A stretch of 64,000 bases of DNA, from contig NZ_CP020880.1 of the NCBI RefSeq assembly GCF_002157855.1, forward strand, positions 620,001 to 684,000. The letters run 5' to 3'. Shown piece by piece: positions 4,605-62,710 of this stretch. The notes beneath the pieces are model-generated. The model had not been told where the DNA came from. It searched no databases and was given only the letters and a program-made list of their open reading frames with translations. A program made the translations under genes and the position numbers. Every line of letters begins with the position of its first letter. The stretch's first letter is position 1. This stretch comes from Sutcliffiella horikoshii. Its GTDB lineage: Bacteria > Bacillota > Bacilli > Bacillales > Bacillaceae_I.

Positions 4605-4626
4605 TTATTTTCGGTAAAGGTGAAGT

Positions 4627-4661
4627 GGGTTGAGGGGAGAGGTTCCTTGACCCATTTTTTT
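4627..4661 (-). repeat. Interspersed repeat copy 4 (degenerate)
   Basis: The plus strand reads GAGGGGAGAGGTTCCTTGAC followed by CCA and a T run, 23 bp after the dehydrogenase stop. It has a GGTTCC instead of GGCACC centre. Confidence 0.7.
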
Positions 4662-4758: not shown

Positions 4759-4841
4759 TTCGGACAACTTTTCACAGGTTGAATTTTTGGTTCGGTCAAC
4801 TTTGGAAAAACTTCGGTCAAAATTGCGAAATCTTCGGACAT
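4759..4841 (-). repeat. Keyword array A: TTCGGTCAA at 21/32 bp spacing
   Basis: The 9-mer TTCGG(T/A)CAA begins at 4759, 4791 and 4812, with TTCGGACAT at 4833, giving intervals of 32, 21 and 21 bp. The spacer sequence is not repeated. Read on the minus strand the keyword is TTGACCGAA/TTGTCCGAA, the same as array B. The array occupies the 570 bp gap between the dehydrogenase and PadR genes, which holds no other gene. Confidence 0.8.
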
Positions 4842-5056
4842 TTACCTAAAAGGCATGCAAGTGACCACATAGATTACCTTTATTTCATCTATCACTCTGT
4901 TATTTTGAAATAACAAAAATTAAACAAACGTTGGTATAACCGAAAATTCATCTTTTAAATAATTGATTTTAAATCCATTCGTCAAAGCTCAACCATTTTT
5001 GCAATCTATACTAAAATAACATTCGTCAATCCATTCAAACAACTCCTTTCAAAACT

Positions 5057-5083
5057 GGGCCACCGTGCCTGTCTCCTCAACCC
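5057..5083 (+). repeat. Interspersed repeat copy 5
   Basis: The plus strand reads GGGCCACCGTGCCTGTCTCC followed by TCAACCC, ending 11 bp before the -35 box of the PadR gene. Confidence 0.8.
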
Positions 5084-5093
5084 AAAAAACCCC

Positions 5094-40361: not shown

Positions 40362-40475
40362 CTCAACCCACCAAAGACGAACATTAAAATAGGTATTTAT
40401 AATTAATATTCGGATTTTCGTTGATATTCCAATGTGCATTTGTTATATTAGGATAGTAGTAAAATTAAATATATT

Positions 40476-40548
40476 TACTCGTATATACTCGGTAATATGG
40501 TCTGAGTGTCTCTACCCGGTTCCCATGAAAGAACTGGACTACGATTGA
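40476..40548 (+). promoter_or_regulatory. Guanine-type purine riboswitch
   Basis: The aptamer shows P2 ACTCGG / TCTGAGT around TAATATGG, the conserved TCTCTACC, P3 CCGGTTC / GAACTGG with loop CCATGAAA, and the J3-1 strand GACTACG. The pyrimidine that pairs with ligand is C (GACTACG, not GATTA), so guanine or hypoxanthine is the expected ligand. It lies 170 bases before the nucleosidase start, and T-rich hairpin sequence follows as expression platform. Confidence 0.88.
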
Positions 40549-40722
40549 AAGTATAGGGAAATTCCGCTTTTTTGCTGATTCCAACTTTTGATGCAGGGCT
40601 ATTTCTCTGCGTCGTTATTTATACTTGAACTCGTAGGTGTAGAGGGTAGAAATTATTCTATTTTCTAGGCCTTTTTCTTTTGACCAGAGCAGCAAAAAAA
40701 TACTACTTAGGAGAGATTATGT

Positions 40723-41670: not shown

Positions 41671-41743
41671 TGTGGAAGTTCTCTTCGTGCGAGGGGACAT
41701 GTCACTCCATCCATGAAGCGGATAGTTCTCAGTCCTTAGTCAA

Positions 41744-41952
41744 ATGTCCGAAGATTTTCGATTTTTGACCGAAGATTTCGAAAAGTTGGCCGAAGTTTCA
41801 GCAGAGTTGACCGAAGATTGACGGTAATTGACCGAACGAAATTTTAGGGTGTCCAAAGGTGGTCAAAAGTTGACCGAATGTCGCGTTGATTTGTCCAAAC
41901 TCCTCATTATTTACCTTCTTAATTGTCCGAAGCATGAGGATAATTGTCCGAA
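41744..41952 (+). repeat. Keyword array B: TTGACCGAA/TTGTCCGAA at 20-21 or 32 bp
   Basis: Units begin at 41744, 41765, 41786, 41807, 41828, 41850, 41870, 41891, 41923 and 41943, giving intervals of 21, 21, 21, 21, 22, 20, 21, 32 and 20 bp. The keyword is TTG(A/T)CCGAA (two units TCCAAA). The 11-12 bp between keywords differ. It lies in a 500 bp gene-free gap between the nucleosidase terminator and the convergent nuclease gene. A 71-codon frame from 41828 is a shadow. Confidence 0.85.
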
Positions 41953-42112
41953 CCAAATTTTACTCACAAAAAAAGAGTCATTTTCTTTAAAAAAGTTGTA
42001 TTTTACTAACAGAAAAGCAGTGGAAGCGAAGGAGGTACCTTGACTGCACAAACGCAAGTCTCTAATAAAAAAAGAACAGAACCCCTAAAGAGTTCCGTCC
42101 CTCTACACCCCC

Positions 42113-44026: not shown

Positions 44027-44929
44027 CTACAATCCGACTTCATCCACCGCATAAGTAGCATCCTCATTACTGAATCCTTCAAATTCTAGCTGTTGGATTA
44101 AGCCGCTTCTTGAGAATGCAGTGTAATCAAGGTAGTCTTGTGCCATTATAACTGCTTGGGCTCTCCAGTCTACTTGGAGATTATCTACTGCATAAGTAGC
44201 ATCTGCATTGCTGAACCCTTCAAACTCAAGCTGTTGGATCAAGCCAGTTCTTGAGAATGCACTGTAGTCCAGGTAATCTTGAGCTGTTTGGACTGCTTGG
44301 GCTTGCCAGTCTACTTGAAGCTTATCAACGGCATAAGTAGCATCAGCATTACCGAACCCCTCATATTCTAACTGAGCAATTAAGCCGGGTCTTGAAAATG
44401 ATGTATAGTTAAGGTAATCTTGTGCCATTTGAACTGCTTGGGTTTGTGACATTGTTTCTGCATTTCTTGCTGCTTCCTCGGCCTCTTTTTTAGCTTGTTC
44501 TTCTGCCTCTTTCTTGGCCTGTTCTTCGGCTTCAATCTTAGCTTGCTCTTCTGCCTCTATCTTGGCCTGCTCTTCGGCCTCTTTCTTGGCTTGTTCTTCC
44601 GCATCTATCTTAGCTTGCTCTTCTGCCTCTTTCTTGGCTTGTTCTTCCGCATCTATCTTAGCTTGCTCTTCGGCCTCATTCTTAGCTTCTTCTTCAGCTT
44701 GTTCCTCTGTCTCTATTACTTCGCTCTTTACTGCAATCTCCTTTGTGGGTGGTGTGGTTATTCCAAATAAAATGAAAAATGCTACTGTTGCAGTTCCAAA
44801 ATAAATCACCACATACTTTCTTTTTCTTTTGGCTTCGGGAGACCACGATAAAACTATACCGGGCTTAATCATGCCAATAACAAATGCTAAGAATGAAATA
44901 AGAGATAAAATTAAGAAGAAATCATCCAT
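44027..44929 (-). CDS. Membrane-anchored triple Ltp-domain protein
   Basis: The 300-residue protein has two N-terminal membrane helices (LILSLISFLAFVIGMIKPG and YFGTATVAFFILFGI). A linker with nine EEQA units of 8 residues (EEQAKKEA, EEQAKIDA, EEQAKIEA) follows at about 80-155, then three 45-residue Ltp (PF07553) repeats, each AVxMAQDYLxYxxFSR, LIxQLExEGF and DATYAVD. Ltp proteins of Streptococcus phage TP-J34 block DNA injection of superinfecting phage. The helix pair is an Ltp HTH-like unit. The orientation and rod-like linker suit an extracellular display. Confidence 0.85.
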   Translation of the reverse strand: MDDFFLILSLISFLAFVIGMIKPGIVLSWSPEAKRKRKYVVIYFGTATVAFFILFGITTPPTKEIAVKSEVIETEEQAEEEAKNEAEEQAKIDAEEQAKKEAEEQAKIDAEEQAKKEAEEQAKIEAEEQAKIEAEEQAKKEAEEQAKKEAEEAARNAETMSQTQAVQMAQDYLNYTSFSRPGLIAQLEYEGFGNADATYAVDKLQVDWQAQAVQTAQDYLDYSAFSRTGLIQQLEFEGFSNADATYAVDNLQVDWRAQAVIMAQDYLDYTAFSRSGLIQQLEFEGFSNEDATYAVDEVGL

Positions 44930-56086: not shown

Positions 56087-56116
56087 TGTAACATCTCCTC
56101 AGGGTGCTTTATCTAT

Positions 56117-56230
56117 TTTATAGTCCAAGTTTTTGATTTATAATCCAACTTTTTGTTTTATAGTCCAAGTTTTTGATTTATAAGCCACTTTTTCATTATA
56201 TAGTCCATTTGGGGTCATATAAATGCCATT
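56117..56230 (-). repeat. Keyword array C: TATAGTCCA at 20 bp
   Basis: The CC pair of TATA(G/A)TCCA recurs at 56125, 56145, 56165, 56185, 56205 and 56226, giving intervals of 20, 20, 20, 20 and 21. Some spacers are alike (AGTTTTTGATT). It ends with AAATGCCATTTG. It lies in the 400 bp divergent gap between the GNAT and LXG genes; the remaining 250 bp hold presumably the LXG promoter. Confidence 0.85.
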
Positions 56231-56486
56231 TGACAAAATATGATGGGAAAATTTAGAGTTTCAGCTTTTCATAAATTGGGAATGTGAAAAAAAGGAAGTA
56301 TACTAGAGCGAATGTTGTGTGAAAACGTGGAATTCCGTGTATTGAGATGGGAGAAAAGTTACAGATTTTGGAGTAGGAGCTTGCTATCTAGATAAAACAT
56401 AAACCATAACACCTATTCTAAACAAGTTGGCAAATTGGTAAAATTAAACTAACTGTTTATAAATGAACGTGGGTGGTGATTGCGAA

Positions 56487-58163
56487 ATGAAAATTTTAGA
56501 AGTAGAATCGCTTCATATGGAACTTCAGTCCATGCTTGAAAAGTTGGAGTTGCAGAAGGAAGCAGTGGAAAAGATACATAATGATGTCATGGGGATAGTT
56601 GGTCTGGAAGATGCCTTGAAGGGGCAAGGTGGACAGGCAATTCGAGCATTTTATCAGGACTGCCATATTCCATTTTTGACCTACTATCTATCCGTGCTTG
56701 ATGAATTCAAGAACACGTTAAATGGAATGAAAAGTGCTCTCCAGTCGGTTGAACCATCAAGTTCAGGCTATATTAATGAAAGCTTTTTGCAAAACGATTT
56801 GCCGCGCGCACTGGATAATGCAAGGCGAATGACAACAGATTTAGCAAATGAAACAAATCAGGTTCTCTATTCTGTAAGCGACATTGTTTCCTTGCCAAAC
56901 TTAAGGGAAGATGGTTTTGTCGATCAGGTCCGGGTGGCCGAAAAGGATGTTGATCAAACGCTCGAGAAACTGCATGTATTTGATCAGGAGCAAACCAGGA
57001 AACTAGATGCTGTTTCAGAGAGTAGCCAGGTTGCATCCGGTTATATTGAGCAGATTAATTCCATGTTCACTGCGAAAAAAATCAGCATTAGCGGGTACGA
57101 ATCGGGTTCGTTGCTGGAGAAGTTGGCGAATGAAGCGGTGGGGGCTGGGGTGAATGCACCTGGTAGTGCTTCGGGTACGGCGCTGAATGGGAATTCGATT
57201 AGCGAACGTGCACTGAATTTATTGTTGTCGCATGAAAGTAATATGAGTGCGGATGGACCGGGTACGGAAGGTGAGTCTAAAAGCCTTTTCCATGCCATTA
57301 AGGATGGCGCCTTTGATTCCTTCGCTCCTCTTGCGGTGTTAGTGGCAGCGCATAAGTCTAATCTTCTTCGTATTGAATACACCAAGAAGAAGAATCATTA
57401 TACGTTTAAGTATAATAGGAAGGTTTTGCACTTTCTTAAAGGGAAAATTGGGCCTGAATGGACAAGGAAGCTCATTCAAAAGTTTAATAGAACATCGAAA
57501 AGCTATAGAAATATAGAGAAAACACTAAAAGCTCAAAAGGCGAGTGTTTTAAAGCGCAAGGAATTTAAGGATCCTAGAACTGCGAGTCAGAAGGTAAAGG
57601 GCGGTGTTTGGAAGTTAGCAACGCAAAACCGGTCTCTCCATGAAAATGTTAAAAATAAGATAGTTAAACACTCCTCACGAGAAATGGTCATTCCAAAGGA
57701 AGCCTTTAAGAAAGTGGCGGCAAAGGCCTCAGGTGTCGGAGCTGCAATAGTTGGCACCTACTCTGCGGTTACTAGTATAAGCGACAGGTGGAGCGAAGGA
57801 GACGGCTTGCAAGGTAAGGAAAAATATAATGTACGCGGACGAGTGGTTGCAGAAGAGGTTAACAAAGTAGCAGGTAATGTAACTGGCGCAGCTGTCGGGG
57901 CTTACGCTGGGGCAGCAATTGGAGGTCTACTTTCTGGTCCGTTTGCACCATTTGGAGCTGCAGCAGGAGCTGTAATCGGTAGTGCCATAGGGGCCACAGT
58001 CGGCGAATGGGCCTCAAAGTACACTAATAAATGGGCAAGTGATGCTGGTGCTGCCGTTGGCGAAAAAATTCATGATGTTAAGGAAAAAGCCAAAGATGCA
58101 CTGGATGGAGCAAAAAATGCACTAAGTGATGCAAAAGATTCATTGTTCGGTTGGATGGGTTAA
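56487..58163 (+). CDS. LXG-domain polymorphic toxin with glycine-zipper C terminus
   Basis: The 558-residue protein has an LXG domain over about the first 210 residues (KILEVESLHMELQSMLEKLE, FYQDCHIPFLTYYLSVL), predicted to be secreted by a type VII (ESX) machinery. A basic middle follows, and from about residue 461 to 507 a Gly/Ala-rich hydrophobic region GNVTGAAVGAYAGAAIGG and further GAAAGAVIGSAIGATVGE, then an amphipathic helix. This is a glycine-zipper, as in the pore-forming TelE type of LXG toxin. ATG after GGTGGTGA. Three small membrane proteins follow as candidate immunity. Confidence 0.85.
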   Translation: MKILEVESLHMELQSMLEKLELQKEAVEKIHNDVMGIVGLEDALKGQGGQAIRAFYQDCHIPFLTYYLSVLDEFKNTLNGMKSALQSVEPSSSGYINESFLQNDLPRALDNARRMTTDLANETNQVLYSVSDIVSLPNLREDGFVDQVRVAEKDVDQTLEKLHVFDQEQTRKLDAVSESSQVASGYIEQINSMFTAKKISISGYESGSLLEKLANEAVGAGVNAPGSASGTALNGNSISERALNLLLSHESNMSADGPGTEGESKSLFHAIKDGAFDSFAPLAVLVAAHKSNLLRIEYTKKKNHYTFKYNRKVLHFLKGKIGPEWTRKLIQKFNRTSKSYRNIEKTLKAQKASVLKRKEFKDPRTASQKVKGGVWKLATQNRSLHENVKNKIVKHSSREMVIPKEAFKKVAAKASGVGAAIVGTYSAVTSISDRWSEGDGLQGKEKYNVRGRVVAEEVNKVAGNVTGAAVGAYAGAAIGGLLSGPFAPFGAAAGAVIGSAIGATVGEWASKYTNKWASDAGAAVGEKIHDVKEKAKDALDGAKNALSDAKDSLFGWMG

Positions 58164-60033: not shown

Positions 60034-60080
60034 AGGGACAGGTACGCCGACCCGGTTGGGGGCTGGCGTGTCTGTCTCTA
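60034..60080. repeat. Interspersed repeat doublet 23
   Basis: GGGACAGGTACGCCGACCC and GGGGGCTGGCGTGTCTGTCT are inverted with a short loop just after the 59321 gene. Confidence 0.78.
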
Positions 60081-60126: not shown

Positions 60127-60161
60127 TGGTTTTTGTCGCTTCGCTTGTATTGGGGGGAGTT

Positions 60162-60270
60162 TGGACAGTAAAGTGGGGTTAACGGACAGTATTTTCATTT
60201 TTGCGACAGTATTGTGGTGATTTCCGACAGTAAAGGGGTGTGTTTGGACAGTAAGTGGAATCAGACGGTA
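60162..60270 (+). repeat. Keyword array D: GGACAGTA at 20-21 bp
   Basis: GACAGTA starts at 60164, 60185, 60205, 60226 and 60247 (intervals 21, 20, 21, 21), and GACGGTA at 60264. Spacers differ. The first unit, GGACAGTAAAGTGGGGTTAAC, lines up with array F read on the other strand (GGAAAACAAATTGGGGCTAAC). It fills the gap before the MFS gene. Confidence 0.85.
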
Positions 60271-61684: not shown

Positions 61685-61703
61685 GATTGGGGTGGCGTGG
61701 TGA

Positions 61704-61800
61704 TTTATCAACCAACTCTTGAATTTATCAACCACTTTTTTAGGTTTATCAACCAACTTTCAAAAATATCAACCACTTTGGGCAATTTAAATGCCATTCG
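61704..61800 (-). repeat. Keyword array E: TTTATCAACCA at 20-21 bp
   Basis: Units start at 61704, 61724, 61745 and 61765 (AATATCAACCA), with a final AATTTAAATGCCATTC at 61784. Intervals are 20, 21, 20 and about 20. The final unit matches the corresponding end of array C (ATATAAATGCCATTTG), although the keyword differs. Confidence 0.83.
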
Positions 61801-61850
61801 GCAAATACCGACAAATATAACACCTAATTTTAATGGAACTCCCTACCACC

Positions 61851-61881
61851 TGGGTCGGCGTGCCTGTCCCCTCAGCCCACC
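61851..61881 (+). repeat. Interspersed repeat copy 24
   Basis: The plus strand reads TGGGTCGGCGTGCCTGTCCC followed by CTCAGCCCACC, upstream of the VOC gene. Confidence 0.85.
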
Positions 61882-62408: not shown

Positions 62409-62508
62409 TTTATGAGCTAGAAATTTTTGAGAATCAGCGAGTTTGCTAGTTTAGGCGGGAAATTAAGGCACAAATTGATGACGAGCTCCCGGAATCGAGG
62501 AGGATATG

Positions 62509-62660
62509 GTCCGTTCGGGCGAATTATTTTCCGGTCACGTGATTTTATTTCCCGTTAGCCCCAATTTGTTTTCCAAACTTACCGATATATTTTCCGTTAC
62601 GCCCGTTTTATTTTCCAAAGTCACCAATTTATTTTCCGTTACACCAAATTTACCTTCCAT
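62509..62660 (-). repeat. Keyword array F: TATTTTCC(G/A) at exactly 21 bp
   Basis: The CC of TATTTTCC falls at 62531, 62552, 62573, 62594, 62615, 62636 and 62657, six exact 21-bp steps, with a possible extra unit at 62511. Keywords alternate between TTTTCCGTTA and TTTTCCAAA. The frame 62506-62793 that would encode heptapeptides such as LFSVTPN is not supported as a gene. Confidence 0.88.
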
Positions 62661-62680: not shown

Positions 62681-62710
62681 CGGGTCACCGCACCTGTCCC
62701 CTCAGCCCAC
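62681..62710 (+). repeat. Interspersed repeat copy 25, inside a gene end
   Basis: The plus strand reads CGGGTCACCGCACCTGTCCC followed by CTCAGCCCAC. Its complement supplies the last codons and TGA of the TetR gene. Confidence 0.82.

What the first reader, a model, noticed from the sequence alone, without database searches (positions are those of the whole stretch)
41744..41952. Helically phased keyword array B and its inverted relative A
TTG(A/T)CCGAA occurs ten times with intervals of 20, 21, 22 or 32 bp. These are close to 2 or 3 DNA turns (21 and 31.5 bp). Array A (4759-4841), 37 kb away and inverted, has the same keyword at 21, 21 and 32 bp, and both begin with AAATGTCCGAAGATTT. Within a simple tandem repeat the spacers would be alike; here they are not. 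That argues for selection, or an unknown process, acting on the keyword and its phase.
Basis: seen in the sequence. Interest (0 to 1): 0.92.

Follow-up and report, generated by a model that had tools for sequence, protein, structure and literature searches.

The report
Phased keyword arrays between bacterial genes
Between the genes of this Bacillus relative lie copies of a roughly 210-base element in which a short word recurs about every two turns of the DNA helix; evolution keeps the word and mostly its spacing while the letters in between drift, which suggests a docking strip for a DNA-binding protein that has not been identified.

Summary
Array B (41745-41952) holds ten keywords TGNCC(G/A)AA at intervals of 21 (seven times), 32 and 21; array A (4840-4759, minus strand) has four at 21, 21, 32. 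They are copies of a dispersed intergenic element (F1): 18 loci in this genome, 13 of 16 genomes of its genus, by inference Sutcliffiella. Of 83 distinct copies, 53 share one layout: ten slots in 207-210 bp near multiples of 10.5 bp. Over 11 orthologous loci the keyword core differs at 4.9% of compared sites, spacers at 19.6%, flanks at 19.7%: purifying selection on the word. Evidence for selection on phase is weaker. No clear RNA fold was found. A second class, TGG-NNN-RTAAA every 20/21 bp, has four arrays in the window and occurs in 11 of 46 genera examined. Readings as TnsB-type transposon ends, Spo0A-paralog sites or structured RNA were tested and not supported. Best reading: a protein docking array with an unknown reader. 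By form it is nearest to staphylococcal STAR elements.

The parts
41742..41962 (+). F1 element, array B: full-length copy, ten keyword slots
   Evidence: Sequence; layout shared with 53 of 83 distinct copies; ten keywords spanning 208 bp
41745..41952 (+). The ten 8-bp keywords of B, starting at 41745, 41766, 41787, 41808, 41829, 41850, 41871, 41892, 41924, 41945
   Evidence: Intervals; core positions constrained across orthologous F1 loci
4759..4843 (-). F1 element, array A: shortened copy, four keywords at 21, 21, 32
   Evidence: ortholog in G013 (L182) has nine keywords over 198 bp
56107..56235 (-). Second-class array, keyword TGG-NNN-RTAAA (triplets ACT, CTT, ATT), 20-bp period, head TGTCAAATGGCATTTATATG
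   Evidence: orthologs in G001, G002 and G007
61703..61803 (-). Second-class array, triplet TTG in four units, 20/21-bp period, head TGCCGAATGGCATTTAAATTG
   Evidence: orthologous place in G008 and G009 carries other triplets
62505..62659 (-). Second-class array, keyword (T/C)GGAAAATAAA, 21/42-bp period
   Evidence: orthologs in G004, G008, G009 and G012
60160..60256 (+). Second-class array, keyword GGACAGTA or CGACAGTA, 21-bp period
   Evidence: read by eye; not in the set and not tested on orthologs

Best explanation
F1 is a dispersed intergenic element of about 210 bp that acts on double-stranded DNA as a docking strip. An unidentified sequence-specific protein reads the 8-bp word TGWCCRAA at up to ten sites spaced by two helical turns (once three), so that bound molecules sit near one face of the DNA and can touch along the strip. 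Shown: the fixed layout, selection on the word, spacers drifting at the flank rate, intergenic position, no clear RNA fold. Arrays probably arise by tandem amplification of a roughly 21-bp unit, after which the spacers drift and the words are kept.
For: Word constrained, spacers not: core 114/2312, spacer 708/3605, flank 3122/15810 over 11 loci, bootstrap of core/spacer 0.087-0.388 and of core/flank 0.072-0.485. Same layout in 53 of 83 distinct copies. Keyword distance unchanged in 371 of 409 ortholog comparisons. The ortholog of A in G013 has a 31-bp interval at a place where B has none, an on-lattice one-turn step. All four orientations relative to neighbouring genes occur among 73 arrays. 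Flanking genes show no common function: 25 flanking proteins of 14 of the 18 loci scanned. A sister-genus array has the same word with nearly uniform spacers, as expected of a young array.
Against: No reader was found. F1 is missing (no pair hit) in 3 of 16 genus genomes, so it is dispensable. Presence at a given place is patchy: in the 700 bp inspected no array follows the B flank in any of six relatives, and one (G010) shows a near neighbourhood without it; the A array is seen in one of five relatives, although one search gives an ortholog of B in L118. Two loci are less clear: core 0.104 with flank 0.124 (group 13), core 0.147 (group 12). Gap runs of 29-30 and 86 bp also occur in the array alignments, five each. 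The spacing periodicity is not sharply 10.5: resultant 0.90 at 10.5, 0.90 at 10.67, 0.89 at 11.0 and 0.81 at 10.0, and is dominated by the inherited 32-bp class. The second class has 20/21-bp units, which would not stay on one face over many units.
Confidence: 0.6

Rival explanations
1. Transposon-end remnants: the arrays are solo ends of Tn7-, Tn5053- or Mu-like elements and the keywords are binding sites of a TnsB-type transposase.
For: Four of eight TnsB-like loci in the genus (L134-L137) carry 20-bp direct repeats with other keywords beside the transposition genes. Second-class heads often read TGTCG, which I recall as a common end of such elements. F1 arrays lie within a few kb of two of these loci (L136, L137), but between ORFs whose size and order suggest glmM and glmS, beside the insertion and not at its end.
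Against: None of the eight TnsB-like loci has F1 or second-class keywords at the repeats beside its transposition genes. PF09299 is found in 0 of 6 genomes chosen for second-class hits, including the three richest (57, 47 and 19 pair hits); the tool warns that nothing rang there and that this does not prove absence, though the same model finds 8 matches in the genus. Keyword constraint at orthologous sites is not expected of decaying ends.
Confidence: 0.1
2. Ordinary minisatellites: tandem 21-bp repeats of no function whose uniform words reflect recent duplication.
For: Unit gains and losses of 20-23 and 40-42 bp occur. A sister-genus array has nearly uniform spacers. Units of the own CGG array are near-identical.
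Against: In F1, orthologous spacers diverge about four times as much as the words; duplication or conversion of whole units would keep spacers as well. Fifty-three copies at unrelated places keep one ordered layout.
Confidence: 0.07
3. RNA-level element: the array acts in a transcript, as sites for an RNA-binding protein or as a 3'-end signal.
For: The 5' neighbour lies on the same strand in 49 of 73 arrays.
Against: Fold z-scores average +0.33 and +0.47 for the two strands (25 of 53 full-length copies, 40 shuffles each); the consensus fold of 40 copies has no pair forward and only 14 pairs at -1.4 kcal/mol in reverse. Ten of 73 arrays are antisense to both neighbours and 14 lie in divergent gaps. 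Rfam's curated thresholds give only a purine riboswitch elsewhere in the window.
Confidence: 0.1
4. Regulator sites: tandem operators of a known type of regulator, such as Spo0A (box recalled as TGTCGAA).
For: Letter similarity only; the second-class head often contains TGTCGAA (the 0A box is recalled).
Against: Spo0A_C has one match in 15 of 16 genus genomes, including G005 and G010, which have no F1 pair hit, and none in G011, which is 80% complete. The F1 word has one base more than the box. Neighbouring genes have no common theme and many arrays are not upstream of a gene.
Confidence: 0.08

Closest known systems
STAR elements of Staphylococcus (PMC3532100; abstract and passages seen)
   Same: Interspersed intergenic direct repeats; conserved short word with locus-specific spacers; copy number of units varies; function and reader unknown; authors suspect purifying selection.
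   Different: STAR word is a GC-rich 14-mer with at least 40 bp between copies, giving repeats of about 50 nt; F1 has an 8-bp word every 21 bp, a fixed ordered layout, and word-against-spacer rates measured between species.
End repeats of Tn7-like (TnsB-type) elements
   Same: Direct repeats of about 20 bp read by a DNA-binding protein (recalled); such repeats are seen beside four TnsB-like loci in this genus.
   Different: Different keywords; F1 is not at the ends of these loci; no TnsB-type protein detected in six genomes with second-class arrays.
Plasmid iterons and centromere-like repeat arrays (recalled, not looked up)
   Same: Direct repeats near two helical turns that carry a protein array.
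   Different: Those sit at one replication or partition site; F1 is at 18 chromosomal loci.
REP, BIME, ERIC and MITE elements (recalled, apart from listings)
   Same: Short, intergenic, many copies.
   Different: Those are built on inverted repeats; the repeat search found no inverted pair around array B, and F1 shows no clear fold.

Membership tests
STAR element | 14-bp word T(G/A/T)TGTTG(G/T)GGCCC(C/A) | tested here: not met
   F1 word is TGWCCRAA; STAR consensus from PMC3532100
STAR element | At least 40 bp between words | tested here: not met
   Start-to-start 21 bp in most intervals
STAR element | Intergenic, dispersed, locus-specific spacers | tested here: met
TnsB-type transposon end | Array bounds an element with TnsB-type transposase | tested here: not met
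   Eight PF09299 loci of the genus inspected over 20 kb each; own end repeats differ
TnsB-type transposon end | TnsB-type protein present where arrays abound | tested here: inconclusive
   0 of 6 genomes, with the tool's warning that no control genome rang
TnsB-type transposon end | Target-site duplication or clean empty site | tested here: inconclusive
   Neighbourhoods of A and B in relatives are rearranged or unalike; no clean empty site
Structured RNA or riboswitch | Stable or covarying fold | tested here: not met
   no Rfam match at the arrays at curated thresholds
Spo0A regulon site | Extra Spo0A-type protein in F1-bearing genomes | tested here: not met
   One Spo0A_C match in 15 of 16 genus genomes
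Protein docking array | Word under purifying selection, spacers free | tested here: met
Protein docking array | A protein that binds the word specifically | not testable with these tools
   Needs binding experiments

The most novel reading that the evidence does not exclude
F1 and the TGG-NNN-RTAAA arrays belong to one widespread system of chromosomal address strips: a fixed scaffold plus a variable word, read by a fast-changing family of DNA-binding proteins. In the second class the inner triplet differs by species and locus (CTT/ACT, ACA/CTA, TTG, CTG, CGG) while scaffold and period stay. At two orthologous places the triplets differ between species across the array (TTG against CTA/CAA/ACA; CGG against CTT), and in some arrays the head carries the same triplet as the units (L052 CTG, L134 CAA). 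That would be a cis code co-evolving with its reader, as in self/non-self marking or an arms race. Unit amplification or array replacement could also make units uniform and is not excluded.
Probability: 0.2. Interest if true: 0.92.

Novelty: new variant of a known kind. Interest (0 to 1): 0.72.

Why it matters
Bacterial intergenic DNA is usually assigned to promoters, terminators, small RNAs or mobile debris. Here a multi-copy element shows selection on a short word, and probably on its helix-scale spacing, while everything between drifts. That points to an undescribed architectural or marking protein in relatives of Bacillus.

Tried and rejected
Transposon-end reading: PF09299 in the genus, eight 20-kb loci inspected, and six other genomes; not supported. 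RNA reading: not supported. Spo0A reading: not supported. Viral link: the exact F1 pair pattern and one second-class head (20 exact bases) gave 0 stretches in viral contigs; looser forms were not tried there. Replication link: GC skew of the sampled stretches changes sign near 2.2 Mb; 15 of 18 F1 loci of this genome lie in the first arm and 13 of 18 read against the leading strand, but nine loci read by eye from the G002 rows are not one-armed, so nothing is claimed. Common function of neighbours: none seen among 25 flanking proteins of 14 of 18 loci; four loci were not scanned. Clean empty site: not found.

Literature: eight searches showed no report of these arrays; the library lacks most subscription journals and all preprints. 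Only PMC3532100 was opened, by term search (abstract and passages). All other papers were seen as listings.

Weak points. L061-L123 were fetched with an exact two-keyword pattern and so favour clean 21-bp units; units matching that pattern were left out but not. From the ortholog test three loci with duplicated arrays (L019, L071, L119) were dropped; of 18 groups (55 sequences) the 11 with three or more members (41 sequences) were used. Pairwise counts and the indel comparison (Fisher p 0.0004) are not independent. Second-class rates come from two orthologous arrays only. In the triplet test only the third base exceeds every within-genome shuffle (71 of 85; mean 58.9, largest of 2000 70); the whole triplet (43; mean 36.0, largest 47) and the first two bases (46; mean 38.9, largest 51) do not; neighbouring pairs share units; 85 of the 90 own-genus rows were used, five identical repeats within a genome being dropped. 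Eleven of the 20 stretches were chosen for keyword clusters, which biases. Gene calls are longest-ORF guesses; they missed a small gene beside the six-species locus, which affects those rows; glmM, glmS and rpmB are my reading, not search results.

Full report
WHAT WAS CLAIMED AND WHAT IS THERE. Array B has ten keywords TGNCC(G/A)AA at intervals 21,21,21,21,21,21,21,32,21, and array A has four at 21,21,32 on the other strand. Exact TTGWCCGAA occurs nine times in the window, 1.01 expected, at most three in 100 shuffles. A chain of ten at such spacing compares with one or two in 200 simulated windows. In the window's intergenic DNA identical 8-mers recur at lag 21 twenty times (21.3 per 10,000 positions) and in coding DNA four times (0.78); lags 20, 40-42 and 63 stand out too, and so does lag 11 (12 times). 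Tandem Repeats Finder on 332 kb of this genome (window plus 20 stretches, 11 of them chosen for clusters) gives 148 non-coding rows, most often of period 21 (26 rows), while the 281 coding rows favour multiples of three.

A DISPERSED ELEMENT. In this genome the 21-bp pair pattern hits 68 times at 18 loci, the reversed control 0 times. Among 61 genomes a looser pair pattern is found in 13 of 16 of the genus, in one sister-genus genome, and in none of the other 44; the reversed control hits once, in one of those. A scan of one genome per species in GTDB 220 returned 63 stretches, all titled Sutcliffiella horikoshii, Bacillus horikoshii or Bacillus sp. CHD6a, RO1 or RO2. Contig C9 of same-genus genome G008 has the length, 40,454, of an S. 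horikoshii CH28_1T contig in that list, so I take the genus to be Sutcliffiella; this is an inference. Of 83 distinct copies, 53 measure 207-210 bp from first to last keyword, with slots near 0, 21, 42, 63, 84, 105, 126/127, 147/148, 179/180 and 200/201. The consensus starts AAATGTCCGAAG, moves from CCGAAG to CCGAAC in later units, and ends TGTCCGAACCATTTTT.

SELECTION ON THE WORD. Orthologous arrays were aligned and keyword positions taken from a third species. Core positions TG-CC-AA differ in 114 of 2312 comparisons (0.049), the two degenerate positions in 135 of 781 (0.173), spacers in 708 of 3605 (0.196), flanks in 3122 of 15810 (0.197), over 11 loci; bootstrap over loci gives core/spacer 0.087-0.388 and core/flank 0.072-0.485. 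The core is below the spacer at every one of the 11 loci, but two are weaker: group 13 (core 0.104, flank 0.124) and group 12 (core 0.147). So spacers drift at the flank rate and the word does not.

SELECTION ON SPACING. Between keywords shared by two orthologs the distance is the same in 371 of 409 cases, changed by 1-2 bp in 23, by 21-23 in 8, by 42 in 3, by 74-75 in 3 and by 17 in 1. Gap runs of 3-20 bp number 6 in arrays (31 of 1-2 bp) and 195 in flanks (233 of 1-2 bp); runs of 29-30 and 86 bp, five each, also occur in arrays. Intervals in 85 arrays (81 distinct) are mostly 21 (412) and 22 (37), then 32 (53), 42 (34), 43 (14) and others near 10-11, 31, 52-53, 63 and 74-75; a few (8, 19, 29, 60) fall off. 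The lengths of 30 shortened copies fit 10.5 bp steps (resultant 0.78; 0.22-0.51 for five other periods), but losing end keywords gives that in part by itself. The ortholog of A in G013 has a 31-bp interval at a new place. Much of the 32-bp class comes from one inherited layout, so phase is less secure than word.

TURNOVER. Loci are not fixed. In the 700 bp inspected no array follows the flank of B in six relatives found, and array A is seen in one of five relatives inspected; an ortholog of B exists in L118, and one locus is shared by six species.

SECOND CLASS. Four more arrays in the window have the form TGG-NNN-RTAAA, or a near variant, at 20 or 21 bp. The pair pattern occurs in 23 of 61 genomes and 11 of 46 genera with no control hit. 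Across the phylum it is at noise level: 4 of 149 genomes including this one, the other three with one hit each, and two control hits. Rates again differ: in one array core 32/414, triplet 7/207, spacer 178/589, flank 328/2795; in another core 0/144, triplet 2/72, spacer 36/192, flank 199/1619. The third triplet base agrees in 71 of 85 neighbouring pairs; within-genome shuffles give a mean of 58.9 and a maximum of 70; the whole triplet and its first two bases do not exceed the shuffles. At two orthologous places triplets differ between species. Unit amplification or array replacement could explain that, so a co-evolving reader remains a possibility only.

MECHANISM. Shown: fixed layout, constrained word, free spacers, mostly retained spacing, intergenic position, all orientations, no clear RNA fold. 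Inferred: a protein reader, cooperative along the strip. The neutral-repeat rival fails on unequal rates, the RNA rival on fold and orientation, the transposon-end rival and, less firmly, 56. The 20/21-bp class shows that strict one-face geometry is not general; the unit may equally be one protein footprint.

COMPARISON. By form it is nearest to STAR elements, which also have a conserved word, locus-specific spacers and unknown function (PMC3532100, abstract and passages). It is not a STAR element: word, spacing and layout differ. I rate it a new variant of a known kind, interest 0.72.

Noticed in passing
window 60035-60056 (+), 61851-61870 (-), 62681-62700 (-); pair 4626-4659 / 5051-5084: Another short intergenic repeat, GGGACAGG...GACCC, recurs near several arrays; at 4626/5051 a related inverted pair lies on both sides of array A.
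   Followed up: no
G000:C1:216074-216342 (L009): Six exact copies of TTGACCGAA at 52-bp steps on the minus strand belong to a clean 52-bp tandem repeat with uniform spacers, unlike F1.
   Followed up: no
L029 (sister-genus genome G016), about 1390-1620: Intergenic array with the F1 word every 21 bp but nearly uniform spacers, as if recently amplified.
   Followed up: partly
own genome, F1 loci: 15 of 18 F1 loci lie in the first replication arm (arms from GC skew); unexplained and not seen among nine G002 loci.
   Followed up: partly
L019 3654-4185; also L071 and L119: Two F1 elements in tandem, about 300 bp apart, at what looks like one locus in three genomes.
   Followed up: no
L136 4411-4619, L137 14964-15150, L134 14847-14917: The gap before a probable glmS gene holds an F1 array in two genomes and a second-class array in a third, each beside a Tn7-like insertion.
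   Followed up: partly
window 40459-40561 (+): Purine riboswitch, Rfam RF00167, 78.3 bits.
   Followed up: no
window 44042-44695: Coding tandem repeats with 141-bp and 24-bp units inside the ORF 44027-44929.
   Followed up: no
window 56463-58163 (+): ORF with an LXG domain next to a second-class array.
   Followed up: no
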